A stretch of DNA of 12,652 nucleotides from CAVPRW01 sp046727435 [NCBI: bacterium]. Its GTDB lineage: Bacteria > Tectomicrobia > Entotheonellia > J063. Below the pieces are notes generated by a model. The model ran no database searches. It was not told the DNA's origin and saw only the letters and a program-made list of their open reading frames with translations. The position numbers were made by a program, and so were the translations under genes. The stretch spans positions 1 through 12,652 of the forward strand of contig JBKPCR010000520.1 of the NCBI GenBank assembly GCA_046727435.1, given 5' to 3'. This document shows, piece after piece, positions 1,584 to 12,116 of this stretch; positions within the stretch are counted from its first letter, which is position 1, and every line of letters begins with the position of its first letter.

Positions 1584-2525
1584 TTATTGGTCGCCCGTAC
1601 CTTTGATGTCAGCCTGCACAAATTGCCAGCCAAACCGTCCTTTGACACACAGGTGACCATGGCCGACATCGTGGTCGAGGGGAGAGGTAGCTTTGACAAT
1701 CTGATTGTCCTGGACGTGGAGCGTTAACGTACATCCGACCCCACAGTATGGGCAGATGGTATCGGTGTGCGTCTGCTGTGCCTCATCCCAGGTGCCGGCC
1801 TGACGCATCTCATGCTCGCGGCGCGGTATGAGGGCGCCAGTTGGACAAACGCCAATGCAGTTCCCGCAGTAGACACAGGCTGACTCCGGAAGCGGTACCG
1901 CAAACTCGGTCGAGATGTGAGCCTCGAAGCCGCGCCCGGCCACAGCGATGGCAAAGGTGTTCTGAGCATCTACACCACAGGCCTCGACGCACTTGTAGCA
2001 CAAGATGCAGCGGGAATAGTCCCGCACATAGAGGTCGTTATCGAGCTTTGGAGGCTGTGCCACACTGGCGGCGGTCCTCTCCAAAGGCTGGTGATGATGT
2101 CCTACGCGCTGGAGTTCGCGTTGACGCGGGGCTTCAGGCGGCCCATAGCGTTCAGGGCGAGCCTGGTAGCGTTGCAGGTAGTCCTGCACCGTCGGGGCCA
2201 GCGACAGATCAACCGCAGAGGCCAGGAATTCCAGTACCATCCGCCGGCTCAGGCGGACGCGCGCGGAATCGGTCTGCACGACCATGCCTGACTCGACCTG
2301 CCGCGAACAGGCGGGTACCAGGATCCGCGAGCCTTCGACTTCGACCACGCAGACACGGCAGACATTGACCGGCGTCAGATTCTCCAGATAGCACAGTGTC
2401 GGGATGTCAATATCCTGGCGCCGACAGGCCTCGAGTAGCGTCGTCCCTTCTGGCACCCGGAGCGAATCTCCATCGACGGTCAATTCGATGTCCCGAGTGG
2501 TGTGACCGGGCGCGTCCCCTCTCAT
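1584..2525 (-). CDS. Formate dehydrogenase iron-sulfur subunit: detached N-terminal half of the alpha subunit
   Basis: This 313-residue protein is the part of an NAD-linked formate dehydrogenase alpha subunit that normally precedes the catalytic domain. A plant-type 2Fe-2S domain uses Cys45, 56, 59 and 73. Two ferredoxin-type 4Fe-4S motifs use Cys173/176/179/183 and Cys217/220/223/227. The Fe4S4 domain of the molybdopterin fold uses Cys258/261/265/293, followed by Lys295 in HLCVKGRFGW; that lysine matches the one bridging cluster and cofactor in E. coli FdhF. The protein stops ten residues after that domain, exactly where the catalytic domain should begin. The His-x3-Cys-x2-Cys-x5-Cys cluster motif of NuoG-like proteins is absent, since there is no Cys between 73 and 173. 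Its ATG overlaps the upstream gene's stop as ATGA and has a strong Shine-Dalgarno, so it is translated in its own right. Inferred role: passes electrons from the catalytic subunit to the NuoEF subunit in the cytoplasm. Confidence 0.93.
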   Translation of the reverse strand: MRGDAPGHTTRDIELTVDGDSLRVPEGTTLLEACRRQDIDIPTLCYLENLTPVNVCRVCVVEVEGSRILVPACSRQVESGMVVQTDSARVRLSRRMVLEFLASAVDLSLAPTVQDYLQRYQARPERYGPPEAPRQRELQRVGHHHQPLERTAASVAQPPKLDNDLYVRDYSRCILCYKCVEACGVDAQNTFAIAVAGRGFEAHISTEFAVPLPESACVYCGNCIGVCPTGALIPRREHEMRQAGTWDEAQQTHTDTICPYCGVGCTLTLHVQDNQIVKATSPLDHDVGHGHLCVKGRFGWQFVQADIKGTGDQ

Positions 2526-4369
2526 GATGCCTCCTCTGGGGTGAAATATTTCAGCTGGGCGATGGCGGATTCAATGGCACTGGGGGCGGTTTGCCCTAAG
2601 CCACAAATCGAAGCGTCGCGCATGACCTGGGCGATGTCGGCACGCAGGGCCAGTTCATCCTGGAGCGAGCTCAGCAGATGGCTATCGATCAGTCGATGCA
2701 GCCATTCCTCCTGGCGCACTGTCCCAATGCGGCAGGGGACGCACTGCCCGCACGACTCATCCCGGAAGAAAGCGGCGATCCGCGACAGCACCGCTTTCAT
2801 ATCGATGGTGTCATCGAACACCATGACGGCACCCGAGCCGATAGTGGCACCGATGGCGCGCGTGCCCTCGAAGGTCAATGGGGTGTCGAGCTGCTCAGGG
2901 GTGAGAAATGTGCCAGCCGCTCCACCCAACAGGATGGCCTGTAGCGCGCGTCCCTGTCGCAAGCCACCTGCCAGGTCCAGCAACGTCTGCAGGGTCGTGC
3001 CGAAAGGGACCTCATAGACACCTGGGCGCGCGATGCAGCCAGACACGCAGAAGAGCTTGGTGCCCGTCGATGCGGGAGTGCCAATGGAGGCAAAGGTCGT
3101 TCCCCCGTGACGGATGACCTCCAGCACATTGACCAGGGTCTCAACATTATTCACCACAGTCGGTTTGCCGAACAGCCCCACCTGCACGGGGAACGGTGGC
3201 TTGTTGCGCGGCTCGCCACGATAGCCCTCGATGGAGTTCAGCAAAGCAGTTTCTTCACCGCAAATATAGGCACCAGCCCCACGCCGCAACTCGATCTCAA
3301 AGCGAAACCCTTGGGACATCACATCTGCGCCTAACAATCCTCGGGCTCGCGCCTGCACGATCGCATTGGTGAGACGCCTGGCCGCCAGCGGATACTCACC
3401 CCGAATATACAGGTAGCCCTGCTCGCAACCGGTGGCAAAGGCGGCGATGGTCATCGCCTCCAGAAGCGCGAAGGGATCTTCTTCCATCAATAGGCGATCC
3501 TTAAAGGTTCCTGGTTCCGACTCGTCCGCGTTGCACACGAGATAATGCGGCCGCACTGCCGCGCGTGCCACTGCCTCCCATTTCCGACCCGTGGGGAACG
3601 CTGCCCCGCCCCGGCCGAGGAGTTTGGCGTCGTTCACCTCCCGGATGATCGCCTCTGGCCCCAGTTCGATGGCTTGGCGCAAGGCTGCATAGCCGCCGTG
3701 GGCACGATAGGCGTCCAGGCTCGTGGGATCAACCCGTCCGACTCTGCGTAGGAGGCACAGGTTGGTATCGCCGGCTTGGGGGATTAGCAGTGGTGGTGGC
3801 TTAGGAGCGGACAGCTCGTGGAGAAGCTGCATGAGATCTGTAGCCGCCATCGGAGCGAACGCCTGTTCTTGCGGCTTTTCTCCCGCCGCGATGCAAAGTG
3901 CGGCTGGTGGGCGCTCGCACAGGCCTAGGCAAGGGCTGGGATGCCAGGTCGCACGCCCATCTGCCGTCGGCGTACCCGCCGGGCCGAGACGACGCTCCAG
4001 CGCCGCACGGATTTTGTCGGCCCCATTGACCATACAGGCGAGATCTTCGCACATGTGCACGACGACGGGTGGTTGTGGCGAGAGTGCCAGGAGGGCATAA
4101 AAGCTGGCCACGCCATAGGCTTCGGCAGGTGGTATGGTCAGGCGCTCGCAGATGTAGCTGAGTGCTGCGGGACTGATCCAGCCCACGCGTGCCTGCACCG
4201 CCCATAAGGCTGGCAACAACAGATGACGCTGGTCTCGAGCTGCTGCGTGCCCGCCTCCAGCCGCATGCCTCATCCTCTCTGCTCGCTCGGGTGTGGATGA
4301 TCCCAAGAGCGCATCCACTGCTGCTTGTTCCTCGGGAGTGGCGGGAGCGGGGTACAACCGTAGATCCAT
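2522..4369 (-). CDS. fdhB: Formate dehydrogenase NAD-reducing subunit, NuoE-NuoF fusion
   Basis: This 615-residue fusion is the diaphorase subunit that hands electrons from formate to NAD+. Residues about 50-190 are a NuoE-like thioredoxin-fold 2Fe-2S domain with the four ligands Cys107, 112, 147 and 151. Residues about 205-615 are NuoF-like: the FMN/NADH glycine-rich site LGRGGAAFPTGRKW at 251-264, ESEPGTFKDR at 284 onward, AYICGEETALLNSIEGYRGE near 367-386, and the 4Fe-4S ligands Cys540, 543, 546 and 589 (SCGQCVPCR, ICGLGQ). The same NuoE-NuoF fusion is known as the beta subunit of Methylobacterium extorquens FDH1. The gene starts 54 bp after the catalytic gene's stop with AGGAG about ten bases before the ATG, and its stop overlaps the next start. 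The first 45 residues are a poorly conserved lead-in. NAD+ rather than NADP+ is assumed from the family. Confidence 0.95.
   Translation of the reverse strand: MDLRLYPAPATPEEQAAVDALLGSSTPERAERMRHAAGGGHAAARDQRHLLLPALWAVQARVGWISPAALSYICERLTIPPAEAYGVASFYALLALSPQPPVVVHMCEDLACMVNGADKIRAALERRLGPAGTPTADGRATWHPSPCLGLCERPPAALCIAAGEKPQEQAFAPMAATDLMQLLHELSAPKPPPLLIPQAGDTNLCLLRRVGRVDPTSLDAYRAHGGYAALRQAIELGPEAIIREVNDAKLLGRGGAAFPTGRKWEAVARAAVRPHYLVCNADESEPGTFKDRLLMEEDPFALLEAMTIAAFATGCEQGYLYIRGEYPLAARRLTNAIVQARARGLLGADVMSQGFRFEIELRRGAGAYICGEETALLNSIEGYRGEPRNKPPFPVQVGLFGKPTVVNNVETLVNVLEVIRHGGTTFASIGTPASTGTKLFCVSGCIARPGVYEVPFGTTLQTLLDLAGGLRQGRALQAILLGGAAGTFLTPEQLDTPLTFEGTRAIGATIGSGAVMVFDDTIDMKAVLSRIAAFFRDESCGQCVPCRIGTVRQEEWLHRLIDSHLLSSLQDELALRADIAQVMRDASICGLGQTAPSAIESAIAQLKYFTPEEAS
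2530..2536 (-). promoter_or_regulatory. Shine-Dalgarno of the FDH iron-sulfur subunit
   Basis: GAGGAGG on the minus strand lies inside the last codons of the NuoEF gene, four bases before the ATG at 2525. With the ATGA stop/start overlap it argues for coupled translation and shows that the detached N-terminal module is an independently initiated protein. Confidence 0.8.
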
Positions 4370-4423
4370 GCCGGTGTCTCTCCTGGCCTCAGTGCTACCG
4401 GCGAACGCCAGCCCCTGCCTCCT

Positions 4424-6328
4424 CTAATCGTGTTTGGAGGTGATCTTGTCCACGCGAATGGCGGTGGCTTTGAATTCCGCCGTGCCGGATTTGGGGTCGG
4501 TAGCGTCGATCGTCAGCAGATTGGTGGCCACTTCATCCTGAAAGTGTAAGGTCATGAACGCCAGGCCAGGTCTCAGGCCCGAATCGAAGTGCACCGGCGC
4601 CAGAATCGATCCCCGACGCGAGCTGACCCGTACCCATTCCCCCTCGCAAATATCATAGCCCTGGCCATCCGCGGGTGAGAGGTCGAGGCTTTCGTTGCGC
4701 CGCAACGGCGACGTATACCTCCCACTCTGCACACCGGTATTATAGGAATCCAATCGACGCCCGGTGGTGAGGCGGATGGGATAGTCTTCATCGGTACGAT
4801 CCACGGGGGGGTCATGCTCGACGGCATGGAATGGCGCTCTTGGCCCCTGCACAGGTTCTTCCCACAGGCGGGCATGGAGAAACAGCGTGCCTGGATGCTG
4901 CTCGTCATAACAGGGCCACTGCAGGCCGCCCAGTTGTTCAAGGCGTTGATAGCTCATGCCGGCATGATTGGGGCTGAGGCGACGCAATTCGTCCCAGACG
5001 CTTTCGGCCGTCGGCGCTCCCCAGTCATGACCCAGTCGACGCGCAAGGTCGCAGAGAATGGCCAGGTCGTCCCGCGCCTGACCCGGTGGATTGAGGGCTT
5101 TGCGCACTCGCTGGACGCGACGCTCGCTATTGGTCACCGTCCCCTCGGATTCGCACCAGCTTGCCGCTGCCGGCAACACCACATGCGCCAGTTCCGCCGT
5201 GGCCGTGAGAAACATATCCTGTACCACGAGATGCTCCAGGTCACCCAGCAAATGGAGGGCCCGCTTGGCATCCGCCTCCGACTGCACCGGGTTTTCGCCA
5301 ATGACGTATAGTGCCGACAGCTCGCCACGTTCCATAGCTTCGAACATGTCGCTGAGATGCCAGCCTCGCTTCGGCGGGATCTGCTTGCCCCAGAGTGCCT
5401 CGAACTTGGCTCGCAGCGCATCATCCTCCACGTGCTGGAAGCCGGGCAGGCGGTCGGGTAGCGCCCCCATGTCGCCGCCGCCCTGTACGTTATTCTGGCC
5501 GCGCAGCGGATTCAGCCCTGAGCCATAGCGGCCGACGTGCCCTGTCAGCAGGGCCAGATTGATGAGAGCGACGACATTGTCTACGGCGTTATGATGTTCT
5601 GTGATGCCGAGGGTCCAGCAAATCATCGCTCGATCGGCTTTGGCATAGGTATGCGCGAGCTCGCGGATGAGCGCCGCTGGCACCCCAGTTTCGTGCTCCG
5701 CATACTCGAGTGTGTAGGGCTCAACGCCGGCGCGATAGGCCTCAAAGCTAGCGGTGGCCTGTGCGATGAATGTCTCATTGGCCAGCCCTGCGACAAGGAT
5801 TTCGCGACCGATGGCGTTGGCGAGGGCGATGTCCGACCCCACTTCCAGGCCTAACCAGCCATCAGCCCACGCCGCTGAACTGGTACGGCGCGGATCGATG
5901 ACATACAACTTGGCGCCACGGCGCACACCTTTCACGAGATGGTGAAAGAAAATCGGGTGGGTCTCACGCGCGTTCGATCCCCACAGGAGGATCACATCTG
6001 TATCCTCGATTTCCTGGTACGAACTGGTGCCCCCTCCCGCTCCGAATACCGCCGCCAGCCCGGCGACGCTCGGCGCGTGTCAGGTCCGGTTGCAGCTGTC
6101 GATATTGTTGCTGCCGATGACCACTCGGGCGAATTTCTGCGCCATGAAGTTCATCTCATTAGTGGCCTTCGAGCAGCTGAACAGGCCGAACGCCCGCGGT
6201 CCATACCGTTCCACGGCCACGCTGAATCCTTCAGCAGCGCGATCCAAAGCCTCTTCCCAGGTCGCCGGCCGCAAGCGGCCATGATCACGTACCAGAGGCT
6301 CTGTCAGTCGGACGTATGACCGTTTCAT
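4424..6328 (-). CDS. fdhA: Formate dehydrogenase catalytic subunit, selenocysteine-containing (C-terminal half of alpha)
   Basis: This 634-residue cytoplasmic protein carries the bis-MGD molybdenum or tungsten site that oxidises formate to CO2. It must be read through an in-frame TGA at 6082-6080, codon 83, as selenocysteine: NNIDSCNRT-Sec-HAPSVAG aligns with the E. coli FdhF active site (Sec140-His141). Here these are Sec83 and His84; Arg276 in NPLRGQNNVQG fits the catalytic Arg333. The reading frame continues cleanly after the TGA through YVIDPRRTS, the MGD-binding regions and a C-terminal molydop-binding domain (RLTTGRRLDSYNTG) to the stop at 4424. The start ATG at 6328 (MKRSYVRLTEPLV) is supported by AAGGAG ten bases upstream. 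The protein lacks the Fe4S4 domain that normally precedes this sequence; that part is the gene at 1584-2525. The first 44 bp overlap the 3' end of fdhD. selA, selB and selC are not in the window. A nonsense mutation is the alternative, but position, context and hairpin argue strongly for Sec. Confidence 0.95.
6050..6068 (-). promoter_or_regulatory. Bacterial SECIS hairpin
   Basis: Starting 11 nt after the TGA, the minus strand reads CGTCGCC, loop GGGCT, GGCGGCG: seven stacked pairs, one of them U-G. The loop begins 18 nt after the TGA and starts with G. The well-studied E. coli fdhF SECIS has its loop at nearly the same distance and also a G near the loop's start, which SelB contacts. The hairpin is also coding sequence (SVAGLAAV). 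Confidence 0.8.
6080..6082 (-). other. Selenocysteine codon (TGA, Sec83 of the FDH catalytic subunit)
   Basis: The TGA sits exactly at the active-site Sec/Cys position of the formate dehydrogenase family, immediately before His84. Conserved family sequence continues in the same frame on both sides. Gene callers will usually stop here or start a shorter gene at the GTG at 5995. Confidence 0.93.
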
Positions 6329-7229
6329 TGCTATGCTTCTCCTTGGAGCCATCGAGCGCAATGCGCTCTGGATGGGTATAAATATTGAAGCTCTGGTCAC
6401 GCAGGAAGCCCACGAGCGTCATCCTGAAATGCTGTGCGGCTTCGATGGCCAGACTTGACGCGGCCGAGACGGCGCATAGGATTGGCACCCCTGCCATCGC
6501 AGCTTTTTGCACGATCTCGAAGCTGACGCGACCGGAAACCAGCAGCAGGCGGTCCCTCAGAGGCACTTCTCCCGCCTGCAACATCTGTCCGATGAGTTTG
6601 TCCACAGCATTATGGCGGCCGATGTCTTCCCGCAACGAGAGAAGCCGACCCGCCTGGTCAAACAGGCCAGCGGCATGGAGCCCGCCAGTCTGCTCGAAGA
6701 GCTGTTGTGCCTGGCGCAGAGCGCCGGGGAGTGGCATCAAGACCGAGCCATCAACTACAGGACCTGGCGCCACTGGAGGACAGTGTATGGCCACTTGCTG
6801 AATGGACACTTTGCCGCACAGCCCACAGCTAGAAGTGGCGGTAAAGTGGCGCTTCACAGCCGTGAGATCGACGGGCCGAGCTAGGCGCACCTCGACAATA
6901 TTACAGGTATGACTGACTCCAGAGTGGTCACCCCCATGGACAGCCATAATATCGTGGTGGGAGCCGATCAAGCCCTCGCCATATAAGAAGCCCATGGCCA
7001 GCTCGCCATCGTGTCCCGGCGTCCGCATGGTCACGGCCAGGCTCATCATGTCCTGGTCGGGGCCGCCCACCTGAATTTCCATAGGCTCCTCGGCGACGAG
7101 CTGATCCCGCTGGCGGTACCACATGCCCTGTCGCACCGAGATCACCTGCCTCGAGACGATGTCCGCTTGCCGGCCTCTTGTAGGGTTATCGAACCGGAGA
7201 TCTGCGGTGGCTTGCTCGTGATCAACCAT
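6285..7229 (-). CDS. fdhD: Formate dehydrogenase accessory sulfurtransferase FdhD
   Basis: This 314-residue cytoplasmic protein transfers sulfur from a cysteine desulfurase to the bis-MGD cofactor, a step formate dehydrogenases need for activity. The family's Cys-x2-Cys pair is Cys135 and Cys138 in SSCGLCGK (E. coli Cys121/Cys124). Other family blocks are EEPMEIQVGG near 48, GFLYGEGLI near 80, LREDIGRHNAVDKLIG near 199-214, SGRVSFEIVQKA near 232 and SSLAIEAA near 258. The normal end of the family is about FNIYTHPERI (residue 290); here about 24 further residues run into the next gene, giving a 44-bp overlap. The start at 7229 is chosen because AGGAG lies eight bases upstream; the frame is open further upstream to 7400, but that extension has no family similarity and crosses the ModE-like relic. 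It is the first gene of the operon. Confidence 0.95.
   Translation of the reverse strand: MVDHEQATADLRFDNPTRGRQADIVSRQVISVRQGMWYRQRDQLVAEEPMEIQVGGPDQDMMSLAVTMRTPGHDGELAMGFLYGEGLIGSHHDIMAVHGGDHSGVSHTCNIVEVRLARPVDLTAVKRHFTATSSCGLCGKVSIQQVAIHCPPVAPGPVVDGSVLMPLPGALRQAQQLFEQTGGLHAAGLFDQAGRLLSLREDIGRHNAVDKLIGQMLQAGEVPLRDRLLLVSGRVSFEIVQKAAMAGVPILCAVSAASSLAIEAAQHFRMTLVGFLRDQSFNIYTHPERIALDGSKEKHSNETVIRPTDRASGT
6339..6344 (-). promoter_or_regulatory. Shine-Dalgarno of the FDH catalytic gene
   Basis: AAGGAG on the minus strand, ten bases before ATG 6328 and inside the 3' end of fdhD. It selects the MKRSYVRL start over the upstream in-frame ATG codons at 6400 and 6352, and supports a real catalytic gene without the Fe4S4 domain. 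Confidence 0.7.
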
Positions 7230-8624: not shown

Positions 8625-8642
8625 ATAGGAAGGATATCCTAT
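8625..8642 (+). promoter_or_regulatory. Hairpin covering the kinase ribosome binding site and start codon
   Basis: ATAGGA (8625-8630), loop AGGATA, TCCTAT (8637-8642) forms six perfect pairs that take in the first two bases of the ATG at 8641 and place the AGGA Shine-Dalgarno in the loop. The same stretch contains the palindrome AGGATATCCT at 8631-8640. It follows directly after the 25-bp dyad. Confidence 0.45.
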
Positions 8643-9903
8643 GAGCCGCTATTATAAGCCCCCACATCCATTTCTCCACGACTACACGGCCGAGATTGAG
8701 ATGCTCCGCCAAGCAGTCGTCGCACTCACCCACGACCCGGCAGGCGATGCGCCGCCTCCGCCCGCCCTCGATGAGGCGATGGAAGCAGTGTCGGTGGCCT
8801 TTGAAGAATTACACTCAGTTAATGAAGCGCTTATACAGACCCAGCAGGTCGCCATCCACGAACAGCAGCGGTACCGGGAGTTGTTTACCTTCGCCCCCGA
8901 CGGCTATCTGGTGACCGACCTCCACGGGCTTATCCAGGAGGCCAACCAGGCTGCAGCCACTCTACTCCATGTCGTGCAGGACCAGTTGGCTGGCATCCCA
9001 CTGGCGGTCTTTGTCGCGCCCGAGGCGCGCCAAGGCTTTCGGGCACAGATAGCCTGCTTGCAGAACAGCGCTGCGGTACGAATGTGGGAGGTACCCATTC
9101 AGCCCTGGCGTCAAGCCGCCTTTCCGGCCATGTGTAGTGTGGCTCCAGCACGGGATGTCCACGGGCAGGTGATCGGCCTCCGGTGGCTCCTGCGGGATAA
9201 CTCTGAGCAGCAGCAAGCGTACAAGGTAATAGAGCAGCGGGTTCAGGCGCAGACCGCGGAGCTTGCCCAGGCGAATGCCGCCCTGCAGGACGCGTTAGGC
9301 CAGGCCCAGGTACTTTTGCGCGAGTTACATCATCGGGTCAAGAATAACCTCCAGGTTATCGCCAGTCTGCTGAATTTGCAGTCAGCGTCCGTGCAGGACC
9401 CACACATTCAGGAGATCTTCCAGGGCTGTCAGGAGCGCATTCGCGCCATGGCCCTGGTTCACGAGTTGCTGTGCCAAAGCCGCAACCTGGGACGGATCGA
9501 GCTCGCACATTATCTTGAGGCACTGGCTAGGCAGCTGTTCGGGTCCCACCGCATCGACCCCGAGCGGGTTCACCTCTCAATCCAGGCCGACGAGGTGTTG
9601 CTGGATGTCAATACGGCAATCCCCTGTGGGCTGCTATGTCATGAGCTGATTTCTAACTGTTTGAAGCATGCCTTTCCAGGCCAGCAGTCAGGGGAAGTGA
9701 CGATTACCATTCGGGCCATCCCGGCTGGGCAGCTGACCGTGACCATCCATGACACGGGAATTGGCTTCCCCGAAAGCGTGGATTTCCACAAGACAGAATC
9801 TTTGGGTCTCCAGGTGGCCTGCTTGTTGACCAGGCAGCTACAGGGAACCATGACATTAGCGCGCGACGGCGGGACGTGCTTCACACTCACATTTCCTATC
9901 TGA
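8641..9903 (+). CDS. Cytoplasmic PAS-domain sensor histidine kinase, HisKA_2 type
   Basis: This 420-residue soluble kinase has no membrane helix or signal peptide. Residues about 43-78 form a short helical lead-in, 75-185 a PAS sensor domain (ELFTFAPDGYLVTDLHG at 80-96, then a linker to WLLRDNSEQ), and 188-226 a coiled coil rich in Gln/Ala. The dimerisation and phosphorylation domain is HisKA_2: ELHHRVKNNLQVIASLLNLQ at 228-247, with the phospho-acceptor His at 230/231. The C-terminal HATPase has the N box LISNCLKHAF (Asn339), the G1 box DTGIGFP (371-377) and ESLGLQV at 386-392. HisKA_2 kinases often signal through response regulators encoded elsewhere; none is next to it. The start has AGGAAGGA six bases upstream. 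The PAS domain has no visible heme or flavin signature, so the signal is unknown. It stands alone between two non-coding regions. Confidence 0.9.
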   Translation: MSRYYKPPHPFLHDYTAEIEMLRQAVVALTHDPAGDAPPPPALDEAMEAVSVAFEELHSVNEALIQTQQVAIHEQQRYRELFTFAPDGYLVTDLHGLIQEANQAAATLLHVVQDQLAGIPLAVFVAPEARQGFRAQIACLQNSAAVRMWEVPIQPWRQAAFPAMCSVAPARDVHGQVIGLRWLLRDNSEQQQAYKVIEQRVQAQTAELAQANAALQDALGQAQVLLRELHHRVKNNLQVIASLLNLQSASVQDPHIQEIFQGCQERIRAMALVHELLCQSRNLGRIELAHYLEALARQLFGSHRIDPERVHLSIQADEVLLDVNTAIPCGLLCHELISNCLKHAFPGQQSGEVTITIRAIPAGQLTVTIHDTGIGFPESVDFHKTESLGLQVACLLTRQLQGTMTLARDGGTCFTLTFPI

Positions 9904-10491: not shown

Positions 10492-10492
10492 C
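10471..10492 (-). terminator. Hairpin at the 3' end of the bacilliredoxin gene
   Basis: GCTG, bulged T, TAGCG, loop GAC, CGCTA, CAGC gives nine pairs with one bulge and begins at the last base of the stop codon. On the minus strand it is followed by GATTTG, a very short T run, so it would be a weak intrinsic terminator at best. Confidence 0.35.
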
Positions 10493-10935
10493 TAGGAAAT
10501 CTTCTCCGAAGTCTGCTTCACGCAGAACTGGTCAAAAGCCTCCGTGAGGAACTTGGCGATCTCGGTGGCGTCCCGCTGTTCGATCTGGTGCCGATGCAAC
10601 ATGAACACGGGCTTGCCATCTTTGAACAGCGCCACCGATGGCGAGGAAGGCGGATAGTCATGCAAATACTCGCGCACGCGTGCGGTGGCCTCAAGATCAC
10701 CGCCGGCAAATACCGTGGCCACGGTGTCAGGTACAATCGCATGTCGCAACGACAGCGCAATCCCCGGGCGGGCACGGCCGGCTGCACACCCACACATCGA
10801 GTTAATCACCATCATTACGGTGCCGCCATGTGGCCCCAGCATGGCGTCAACGTCTTCAGGGGTCCGCGTTTCCTGCACGCCCAGTTGCGTCAATTCCTGC
10901 CGCATCGGTCCGATAAATTCTTCTGGATATCTCAC
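10492..10935 (-). CDS. BrxA/BrxB (YphP/YqiW) family bacilliredoxin
   Basis: This 147-residue thioredoxin-fold protein carries the family's Cys-Gly-Cys active site: MMVINSMCGCAAGRARP, with Cys48 and Cys50 in place of a CXXC. The segment GPHGGTVMMVIN before it, PPSSPSVALFKDGKPVFMLHRHQIEQRD (at about 104-131, written here as the pieces PSVALFKDGKP and MLHRHQIE) and the C-terminal helix all match the family in order and length. In Bacillus these proteins remove bacillithiol from mixed disulfides on oxidised proteins. Many genomes outside Firmicutes also carry the family, so the thiol partner here is unknown. The start is GTG at 10935, set by GAAGGAGG nine bases upstream; the ATG at 10942 in another frame meets a stop after three codons. 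A promoter-like pair lies 50 bp upstream. It is not in an operon. I cannot tell BrxA from BrxB. Confidence 0.92.
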   Translation of the reverse strand: MRYPEEFIGPMRQELTQLGVQETRTPEDVDAMLGPHGGTVMMVINSMCGCAAGRARPGIALSLRHAIVPDTVATVFAGGDLEATARVREYLHDYPPSSPSVALFKDGKPVFMLHRHQIEQRDATEIAKFLTEAFDQFCVKQTSEKIS

Positions 10936-11219: not shown

Positions 11220-12116
11220 CTAGAGAGTCCCGCGCGGCACCGGAACCCCTGGAATCTTCAGCCGCAGACGTGCCAGAGTACGCCGGGTGGTGAAGTACAA
11301 TGTCGACCAGTCATCGTCTCCCCAGGCTATGTTTGTGCTCGTCTCCTTGGTCGGGATTGTCCCTAGATGCTTCCCGGCATTGTCGAGGATCCAGACGCCA
11401 CCAGGTCCAGTGCAGTAGACATTGCCCTCCTGGTCAACTTTCATGCCGTCTGGGTTTCCCAGTCGCTCACCGCTCATAGCGCAAAAGACCCGGTCCGTGG
11501 CCAGCGCCAGCAACCCCGTTGGTTCCACATCGAAGGCTCGAATGTGACGACGGCGGGAATCATTGATGTACAAGATCGTCTCGTCCGGGGAAAAGCACAG
11601 GCCATTGGGGAGAACAAAATCCCGTACCAGCAGGTGAATCGATTCTCGATCGGGAGAGACACGATAGACCCCGCAGAAGTCCAATTCGGATTCGACGCGA
11701 CCCACCCCTGGATCGGTAAAATAGATGCTGCCGTCGGATTTCACCACCACATCGTTTGGCCGATTCAAGCGTCGGCTATGATACTGGTTCGCCATCACGG
11801 TGACGCTCCCATCCGGCTCGATGCGGGTCACCCGGCGAGCCCCGCCTTCGCAGGCTATCAACCTCCCCTGTCGATCGCGGGTCAGACCGTTCGCCCCATT
11901 GGTGGGTTCGTGTGCGATAGTAACGCCTTTCCCTGGCGTCCATTGCATGCGTCGATCATTGCCGATATCGCTAAACAGCAGATACCTGCCTTCGTGCCAC
12001 CACAATGGCCCCTCAGCAGGACCCTGGTCATTCCCGAATCCGCTGGCCAGCTCTTCGATCTCCTGCCCTGGGGCCACAATGCGTGCCAAGCCTGGGTCAT
12101 GCTGTTCTATCGGCAT
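11220..12116 (-). CDS. SMP-30/gluconolactonase/LRE-family protein
   Basis: This 298-residue six-bladed beta-propeller belongs to the metal-dependent lactonase family. The expected metal and substrate residues are in place: Glu35 in AEGPLWW, Asn121 in RPNDVVVKSDG, Asn171 in LPNGLCFSPDE and Asp223 in NPDGMKVDQEGN. The remaining blades read GRYLLFSDI, SIYFTDPGVG, ILYINDSRRRHIRAFDV and TLYFTTRRTLARLRL. No signal peptide is seen, so it is probably cytoplasmic. The start at 12116 is set by AAGGAG six bases before the ATG. Family members hydrolyse aldono-lactones in sugar oxidation or other lactones; the substrate here cannot be deduced. The cupin gene upstream is on the same strand, 224 bp away, with hairpins in between, so co-transcription is uncertain. 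Confidence 0.92.
   Translation of the reverse strand: MPIEQHDPGLARIVAPGQEIEELASGFGNDQGPAEGPLWWHEGRYLLFSDIGNDRRMQWTPGKGVTIAHEPTNGANGLTRDRQGRLIACEGGARRVTRIEPDGSVTVMANQYHSRRLNRPNDVVVKSDGSIYFTDPGVGRVESELDFCGVYRVSPDRESIHLLVRDFVLPNGLCFSPDETILYINDSRRRHIRAFDVEPTGLLALATDRVFCAMSGERLGNPDGMKVDQEGNVYCTGPGGVWILDNAGKHLGTIPTKETSTNIAWGDDDWSTLYFTTRRTLARLRLKIPGVPVPRGTL

What the first reader, a model, noticed from the sequence alone, without database searches (positions are those of the whole stretch)
1584..6328. Formate dehydrogenase alpha subunit split in two, with the halves in swapped order in the operon
The N-terminal module (2Fe-2S, two 4Fe-4S, Fe4S4 of the molybdopterin fold) ends at GRFGWQFV plus ten residues. 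The catalytic gene begins at MKRSYVRLTEPLV, the sequence that should follow directly in one chain. The catalytic gene is upstream and the N-terminal module downstream, with the NuoEF gene between. Both have own Shine-Dalgarnos, and the N-terminal one is coupled by ATGA. So the proximal Fe4S4 cluster and its bridging Lys295 sit on a different polypeptide from the bis-MGD cofactor and must dock precisely. Splitting of molybdopterin enzymes is known from formylmethanofuran dehydrogenase (FwdB/FwdD), but at a different boundary. I do not know whether this exact split is described.
Basis: partly seen in the sequence, partly recalled or inferred. Interest (0 to 1): 0.8.

Follow-up and report, generated by a model that had tools for sequence, protein, structure and literature searches.

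The report
Formate dehydrogenase cut in two
Many uncultured bacteria carry a selenium-containing formate dehydrogenase whose large subunit is made as two separate proteins, with the catalytic half encoded first and the electron-wiring half two genes later; this looks like a stable inherited design, not an error, and it puts the iron-sulfur cluster nearest the active site on a different protein from the active site itself.

Summary
On the minus strand lie fdhD, the catalytic half (CAT, 6328-4424), fused NuoE/NuoF (4369-2522) and the N-terminal Fe-S module (NTM, 2525-1584). One family model, Fdh-alpha TIGR01591, is spread over two genes: positions 1-50 end NTM, 52-672 are CAT. The finding does not mention that CAT is open only if an in-frame UGA (6082-6080) is read as selenocysteine; a SECIS hairpin follows it. 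The split is no artefact. None of the 80 best homologues has an Fe4S4 motif upstream in frame. Of 90 split loci, 73 show the full order CAT-NuoEF-NTM, 3 more have NTM 8-10 kb downstream, and 14 are cut by contig ends. Split CATs form one clade among single-chain enzymes. One contig (L081) holds both forms, with coinciding junctions. Ligands for the direct bis-MGD-to-FMN relay known from two solved enzymes are kept; the off-path His-Cys cluster is missing. Best reading: a working NAD-linked formate dehydrogenase whose alpha subunit underwent fission once, perhaps by rotation of the operon. Docking and activity are inferred. Nine paper searches gave no description.

The parts
1584..2525 (-). NTM (alpha-N): [2Fe-2S] (C45, C56, C59, C73), two [4Fe-4S] (C173, C176, C179, C183 and C217, C220, C223, C227), then the Fe4S4 domain of the molybdopterin fold (C258, C261, C265, C293, K295), ending about 14 residues after GRFG
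   Evidence: Pfam; TIGR01591 model 1-50 at residues 256-305; all 16 Cys and K295 invariant in 36 of 36 sequences
2522..4369 (-). Fused NuoE/NuoF (beta): thioredoxin-like [2Fe-2S] domain, FMN domain, SLBB, [4Fe-4S] domain; NAD-linked diaphorase part
   Evidence: Pfam 2Fe-2S_thioredx, Complex1_51K, SLBB, NADH_4Fe-4S; overlaps the NTM start by ATGA
4424..6328 (-). CAT (alpha-C): catalytic half without an Fe4S4 domain; Sec, then H108 and R300 (P0001 numbering)
   Evidence: Pfam Molybdopterin and Molydop_binding; TIGR01591 52-672; position 107, H108, R300, G301, Q302 invariant in 36 of 36
6080..6082 (-). UGA codon read as selenocysteine (residue 107 of P0001)
   Evidence: TGA in 90 of 91 split copies, TGC in L098
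6051..6067 (-). Bacterial SECIS hairpin, +15 to +31 from the U of UGA; 6 bp stem, loop GGGCU here (GGUCU in most relatives)
   Evidence: six pairs formed in 91 of 91 sequences; loop GGUCU 87, GGGCU 4
6285..7229 (-). fdhD, sulfurtransferase needed to activate formate dehydrogenases; overlaps the CAT start by 44 nt; start at the ATG of residue 58 of the open frame is my guess
   Evidence: Pfam FdhD-NarQ; NCBIfam FdhD over its cut-off

Best explanation
This is a NAD-linked, selenocysteine-containing formate dehydrogenase whose alpha subunit has been divided into two polypeptides. CAT binds the Mo or W bis-MGD and carries Sec. NTM carries the proximal [4Fe-4S] cluster (A1 of RcFDH) with its conserved lysine, two more [4Fe-4S] clusters and a [2Fe-2S] cluster. 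Fused NuoEF carries FMN and the NAD site. NTM docks its C-terminal Fe4S4 domain onto CAT where the same domain sits in one-chain enzymes, so electrons run Sec-Mo/W, A1, A2, A3, A5, B6, FMN, NAD+. Shown: gene content, order, ligands, conservation, Sec and SECIS. Inferred: docking, metal, direction, activity. The clade arose by one fission of a fused alpha gene. Since fused relatives read NuoEF-NTM-CAT or NTM-CAT-NuoEF and the split form reads CAT-NuoEF-NTM, the third rotation of the same circle, I infer tandem duplication of the operon followed by loss of both ends, cut at the NTM/CAT boundary.
For: One model over two genes; displaced model piece (positions 1 to about 49-61) downstream on the same strand in 20 of 20 genomes, 12 of them not among my loci. 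Catalytic piece starts at model 47-53 in 40 of 40 genomes. Order CAT-NuoEF-NTM in 73 of 90 loci, 14 others cut by ends, 3 with NTM 8-10 kb downstream. L081: in the fused copy, NTM and CAT matches lie 6 nt apart, exactly where the split copy is divided. CAT: split one clade, SH-aLRT 99; NTM: 31 split rows 100/100. Ligands invariant. RcFDH path A1-A2-A3-A5-B6, with His-ligated A4 outside it (PMC7171172 passages); MeFDH1 alpha has A1-A3 plus one [2Fe-2S] and a fused beta (PMC10869683 passages). Folds: CAT model on MeFDH1 341-981 (8j83_A, Z 41.7), NTM model on MeFDH1 69-336 (7xqw_A, Z 14.9). pN/pS 0.14-0.25 for the three genes. Fused order NuoEF-NTM-CAT in 9 loci and NTM-CAT-NuoEF in 4.
Against: No biochemical evidence. 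Complex structure could not be predicted; the NTM model is weak (mean pLDDT 65.5, low over 176-223 and 288-313) and its best matches are complex I subunits (Z up to 17.3), not formate dehydrogenases. The correlation of CAT, NTM and NuoEF distances (r 0.70-0.74, 65 loci) is expected of any co-inherited operon. The sister of split CATs is a one-chain Fe4S4-CAT enzyme without the NuoG-like part (L100-L107), so the immediate ancestor need not have been fused to NTM. The trees are midpoint-rooted for drawing only. The rotation has a one-in-two chance of fitting by accident. Six of 40 relatives' genomes show no strong tRNA-Sec.
Confidence: 0.85

Rival explanations
1. The halves do not form one enzyme: NTM plus NuoEF serve as a NADH/ferredoxin-type diaphorase for another partner, and CAT works alone or with another redox protein.
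For: NTM resembles HoxU, NuoG and [FeFe]-hydrogenase N-terminal parts, which serve other catalytic subunits. In 11 of the 76 resolved loci the genes are not closely packed (CAT to NuoEF matches over 500 nt apart in 10, NuoEF to NTM in 1) and in 3 more NTM is 8-10 kb away.
Against: The part carried by NTM is precisely the piece missing from CAT, with all four Fe4S4 Cys and the Lys invariant; the genes are packed with median gaps of 52 and 99 nt between matches.
Confidence: 0.08
2. Different origin: not fission of one chain but capture. A short Fe4S4-CAT enzyme (like L100-L107) lost its Fe4S4 domain and came to use one carried by a NuoG/HoxU-like subunit taken from another enzyme. Today's function would be the same.
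For: Nearest relatives of split CAT are one-chain enzymes without the NuoG-like part (50-56% identity), and their Fe4S4 domain is the least like that of split NTM (mean identity 0.43, against 0.47-0.50 for fused enzymes).
Against: Split NTM falls among the NTMs of the same fused enzymes (L116-L121, L125, L132) that lie near split CAT in its own tree, as expected if both halves descend from one fused chain; the 0.43 against 0.47-0.50 contrast is small and rests on about 50 residues.
Confidence: 0.25
3. Assembly error or decaying debris of a formate dehydrogenase operon.
For: The window's genome is not held, so the copy itself cannot be checked.
Against: Same split in 90 loci and across phyla, on contigs up to 9.5 Mb; open frames, conserved SECIS, pN/pS 0.14-0.25 although synonymous sites are near saturation.
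Confidence: 0.02

Closest known systems
MeFDH1 of Methylorubrum extorquens (fused NuoEF beta; PMC10869683, passages)
   Same: Same cluster set in alpha (three [4Fe-4S], one [2Fe-2S]), fused NuoE/F beta with FMN, fold of both halves
   Different: Alpha is one chain of 989 residues, W with Cys436 instead of Sec; here alpha is cut between the regions equivalent to MeFDH1 residues about 336 and 341 and the gene order is rotated
RcFDH / FdsGBA of Rhodobacter capsulatus (PMC7171172, passages)
   Same: NAD-linked, same direct relay A1-A2-A3-A5-B6-FMN
   Different: One-chain alpha, separate FdsG and FdsB, His-ligated A4 cluster at the dimer interface that is absent here (0 of 69 split NTMs have the motif), FdsD and FdsC; no Sec
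E. coli FdhF (FDH-H) and HDCR FdhF
   Same: Sec chemistry and catalytic fold; CAT's best PDB match by sequence is HDCR FdhF (7qv7)
   Different: FdhF keeps its own Fe4S4 domain at its N-terminus
   Same: Closest catalytic relatives, 50-56% identity, Sec, fdhD nearby
   Different: Fe4S4 domain fused to CAT; no NuoEF or NuoG-like module found in the stretches fetched
Formylmethanofuran dehydrogenase FwdB/FwdD (recalled)
   Same: A molybdopterin enzyme chain divided into separate subunits
   Different: Divided at the C-terminal dinucleotide-binding domain, not between the Fe4S4 domain and the rest
HoxU of NAD-reducing hydrogenases
   Same: A separate NuoG-like Fe-S hub subunit
   Different: HoxU has no Fe4S4 domain of the molybdopterin fold (recalled); NTM scores below the HoxU and NuoG cut-offs

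Membership tests
NAD-linked metal formate dehydrogenase (FdsA / MeFDH1 type) | One-chain alpha with NuoG-like module, Fe4S4 domain and molybdopterin domains | tested here: not met
   Two genes; 0 of 80 CATs have the Fe4S4 motif in frame upstream
NAD-linked metal formate dehydrogenase (FdsA / MeFDH1 type) | Ligands for bis-MGD-proximal A1, A2, A3 and the [2Fe-2S] of the direct relay | tested here: met
   16 Cys and K295 invariant in 36 of 36; path from PMC7171172 passages
NAD-linked metal formate dehydrogenase (FdsA / MeFDH1 type) | NuoE/NuoF beta with FMN and NAD sites in the same operon | tested here: met
   Pfam; NuoEF next to CAT or between CAT and NTM
Formate dehydrogenase alpha (catalytic) | Sec or Cys, then His, and Arg in RGQ | tested here: met
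   U/C107-H108 and R300-G301-Q302 invariant in 36 of 36; motif from PMC8808070 passages
Formate dehydrogenase alpha (TIGR01591 equivalog) | Score over the curated cut-off 666.25 | tested here: not met
   CAT alone 661.4, NTM alone 54.6
Formate dehydrogenase | Formate oxidation or CO2 reduction by the assembled complex | not testable with these tools
   needs protein
Bacterial selenoprotein | In-frame UGA with SECIS hairpin just downstream | tested here: met
   UGA 6082-6080; hairpin paired in 91 of 91; 0 of 200 third-position shuffles as stable
Bacterial selenoprotein | tRNA-Sec in the same genome | tested here: inconclusive
   Window genome not held; 34 of 40 relatives' genomes have a match of 54 bits or more, 6 do not; weak matches ring in all 14 control genomes
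HoxU / NuoG subunit | Score over the HoxU (333) or NuoG (470) cut-off | tested here: not met
   138.7 and 133.4 bits

The most novel reading that the evidence does not exclude
A whole clade of molybdopterin enzymes in which the cluster equivalent to FS0, elsewhere on the catalytic chain and in NarGH and DmsABC a prerequisite for cofactor insertion, is supplied in trans by another subunit. The clade arose by rotation of an operon with the cut inside a gene, and because the selenocysteine gene now comes first, failed UGA decoding would stop CAT at residue 82 and could, by polarity, also lower NuoEF and NTM, making the Fe-S hub conditional on selenium.
Probability: 0.4. Interest if true: 0.8.

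Novelty: new variant of a known kind. Interest (0 to 1): 0.64.

Why it matters
In nitrate reductase A and DMSO reductase, insertion of the proximal FS0 cluster is reported to precede and be required for insertion of the molybdenum cofactor (PMC5123574, passages; it cites the DmsABC work). In one-chain enzymes the two steps cannot be pulled apart without mutating ligands. Here the two sites are on separate genes, so one can express CAT without NTM and ask directly whether bis-MGD enters, whether NTM docking is an assembly checkpoint, and what the conserved lysine does from across an interface (in E. coli FDH-H most replacements of that Lys44 leave under 0.23% activity; PMC12176258, passages). 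It is also a natural modular design for engineering formate/CO2 enzymes, and a warning for annotation: the catalytic gene is broken by UGA and lacks the expected first domain, so gene callers will tend to miss it in genomes where it may be the main NAD-linked formate dehydrogenase.

Tried and rejected
Rfam gathering search of the window gave no match, so the SECIS rests on my own alignment. The NTM fold model is weak and was used only for ranges. First NTM tree labelling put two one-chain rows, L083 and L096, under 'split' (my script's error), so the tool's table reports three changes; the remaining 31 split rows are one clade. In one search I used 31 of the 91 split CAT rows from loci plus the window. 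In one search I dropped L051 because L081 is the same contig. L096 was left out of the CAT set because its match was under 500 residues. Pfam on genes between CAT and NuoEF in three Chloroflexi loci found META and MFS proteins in one (L013) and nothing in the frames chosen from the other two, but a SelB-like gene lies upstream of CAT in L114. No copy above 60% identity on plasmids (0 of 1486 records matched). Literature: nine searches and passages of eleven papers, with one section read whole; the words split or fission, where searched (PMC10100899, PMC13397495, PMC7331816 for split, PMC13188914), gave nothing on this. The library holds open-licence papers only, so absence in print is not shown. 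A polarity or regulatory role of the gene order was considered and could not be tested.
Full report
What is in the window. Four genes lie head to tail on the minus strand: fdhD (open frame 7400-6285), CAT (6328-4424), NuoEF (4369-2522), NTM (2525-1584). Pfam gives FdhD; Molybdopterin plus Molydop_binding for CAT; NuoE- and NuoF-type domains for NuoEF; and 2Fe-2S, Fer4 and Molybdop_Fe4S4 for NTM. The NCBI model for the whole alpha subunit, TIGR01591, is divided: model 1-50 at the very end of NTM, model 52-672 in CAT. So what should be one chain, NTM then CAT, is two genes with CAT first and NuoEF between. The finding as given leaves out that CAT contains an in-frame UGA at 6082-6080 at the place of the active-site selenocysteine.

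Selenocysteine. Among 91 split CAT copies from the loci, 90 have TGA there and one (L098, a 9.5-Mb contig) has TGC, Cys. In the window plus those 90, a 6-bp hairpin 15-31 nt downstream is paired in 91 of 91 sequences, with loop GGUCU in 87 and GGGCU in 4, and none of 200 shuffles of third codon positions was as stable. Of 40 relatives' genomes, 34 have a tRNA-Sec match of at least 54 bits; 6 (G015, G020, G022, G029, G030, G031) have only weak matches of the sort that also ring in the 14 control genomes. The Cys version shows that the split does not depend on Sec.

The split is real and conserved. The scan with CAT found 491 relatives in genome contigs, of which the best 80 were kept. All 80 have a stop codon at the Sec position and none has CxxCxxxC in frame upstream of CAT. 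With later loci, and L051 dropped as a duplicate of L081, 90 split loci were examined: 73 show CAT, NuoEF, NTM in that order on one strand, 9 end within or after NuoEF, 6 end within 1 kb of CAT, and 2 have 7 kb downstream without the partners. For L027, L067 and L114, the NTM gene was then found 8-10 kb downstream on the same strand. The remaining 14 are cut by contig or stretch ends; no locus showed another order. In 40 genomes the catalytic piece begins at model position 47-53 (40 of 40), and in 20 genomes, 12 of them new, the missing first piece lies 2.4-9 kb downstream on the same strand (20 of 20).

How common. Identity to CAT falls into two groups with a gap, 62% or more against 58% or less. 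At 62% or more: 28 of 251 genomes in the phylum of G005 (record titled Chloroflexi), 14 of 199 in that of G019 (Terriglobia), 7 of 149 in that of G040 (Aquisphaera), 1 of 118 in that of G001 (titled Deltaproteobacteria; the centre genome itself) and 21 of 149 in that of G023 (titled Actinobacteria, one of the 21 by a fragment): 71 of 866, centre genomes counted. Architecture was checked only for the loci and genomes named above. The eight at 50-58% (L100-L107) are one-chain Fe4S4-CAT enzymes.

Other alpha-type genes in the same genomes. In the 40 genomes the listed matches (capped) include one UGA-containing gene over the whole model, in G028; 10 genomes list another UGA-containing frame matching about model 2-347 at lower score, perhaps FdnG-type, not studied; and several list whole-model matches without UGA. 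Of 17 stretches fetched, those without UGA are at most 39% identical to CAT, and only L081, L083, L096 and L097 carry a NuoG-like module. In one search two of 20 genomes (G751, G872) list other whole-model matches over 500 bits, without UGA. So the split set is usually not debris beside a near-identical intact gene, but distant homologues do coexist.

A contig with both forms. L081 (G028) carries fdhD, a fused NTM-CAT gene with its own UGA, then NuoE and NuoF, and on the other strand a complete split set. In the fused gene the NTM match ends at 3596 and the CAT match begins at 3603: two codons apart. The split therefore falls in the short linker between the Fe4S4 domain and the rest.

Origin. 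In a CAT tree of 75 rows, the 32 split rows are one side of a branch (SH-aLRT 99); their sister group is L100-L107 (100); both lie among fused NTM-CAT enzymes, nearest L116, L117, L118, L125 (93). In an NTM tree of 52 rows, the 31 true split rows form one clade (100/100) among the same fused enzymes (two one-chain rows were mislabelled as split). The trees are midpoint-rooted for drawing only. Both halves thus appear to have had one origin. Fused relatives read NuoEF-NTM-CAT in 9 loci and NTM-CAT-NuoEF in 4; CAT-NuoEF-NTM is the remaining rotation of that circle, which tandem duplication and trimming would give. A random order would fit half the time, so this is a suggestion. The deepest split member, L108, already has the rotated order but NuoE and NuoF as two overlapping genes. 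An alternative, capture of an Fe4S4 domain from another enzyme, is kept as a rival because the sister enzymes lack the NuoG-like part.

Mechanism. All 16 Cys of the four clusters and the lysine after the last one are invariant in 36 of 36 NTMs, and the Sec/Cys-His pair and the RGQ arginine are invariant in 36 of 36 CATs. In RcFDH the direct chain is A1, A2, A3, A5, B6, with His-ligated A4 outside it at the dimer interface (PMC7171172, passages). The A4 motif is absent from 69 of 69 split NTMs; it is also absent in 13 of 21 one-chain enzymes by the same pattern, some of which keep part of it. MeFDH1, too, has three [4Fe-4S] and one [2Fe-2S] in alpha (PMC10869683, passages). The path is thus complete in principle. 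The CAT model (pLDDT 82.5) lies on MeFDH1 residues 341-981 (8j83_A, Z 41.7, rmsd 2.3, 611 aligned), and the weak NTM model (65.5) on residues 69-336 (7xqw_A, Z 14.9), though its best matches are complex I subunits. The two cover MeFDH1 alpha without overlap. Whether they dock was not tested. The three genes are under purifying selection (pN/pS 0.14-0.25, synonymous sites near saturation), and their distances correlate (r 0.70-0.74, Mantel null at most 0.26), which co-inheritance alone would give.

Literature. Nine searches found no description. A Chloroflexi genome from Lost City has focA, fdhA, nuoG, hoxF and hoxE together (PMC7117926, section 8 read), which may be an unrecognised case; I did not check its sequence. 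Reviews of the superfamily note that some members lack the N-terminal cluster altogether (PMC10100899, passages); supplying it from another subunit was not mentioned in the passages seen.

Verdict. Observation confirmed; a conserved, probably functional, alpha-split Sec formate dehydrogenase; a new variant of a known enzyme, of real interest because it places the proximal cluster in trans.

Noticed in passing
L081 (G028:C6:22500-40000): A fused Sec NAD-type formate dehydrogenase operon and a complete split set lie on opposite strands of one 17.5-kb stretch; a natural side-by-side comparison.
   Followed up: partly
L100-L107: Sec one-chain Fe4S4-CAT enzymes, sister to the split clade, with fdhD in the stretch but no NuoEF or NuoG-like gene found; electron partner unknown.
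   Followed up: partly
L098 7619-12215: Split set with Cys (TGC) in place of Sec on a 9.5-Mb contig, followed by fdhD; handy for expression without Sec machinery.
   Followed up: partly
1584-2525: His-Cys cluster (A4) motif missing in all 69 split NTMs tested; predicts loss of the RcFDH-type dimer contact.
   Followed up: partly
L108 4445-9125: Deepest split member has NuoE and NuoF as two overlapping genes instead of one fused gene.
   Followed up: no
PMC7117926 Fig. 3; PMC3543383: Lost City Chloroflexi focA-fdhA-nuoG-hoxF-hoxE contig may be the same split; Pelobacter carbinolicus has a diaphorase set beside an Fe-S protein resembling a noncatalytic part of formate dehydrogenase.
   Followed up: no
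L114 104-2104: SelB-like gene upstream of the split CAT on the opposite strand; tRNA-Sec lies on the same contig as CAT in several genomes (G004, G009, G018, G024, G028, G034).
   Followed up: partly
2-1195: UPF0182 membrane protein, cut by the window end.
   Followed up: no
8641-9903: PAS plus HisKA_2/HWE-type histidine kinase on the plus strand.
   Followed up: no
10492-10935 and 11220-12116: BrxA/BrxB family bacilliredoxin and an SMP-30/gluconolactonase-like protein.
   Followed up: no
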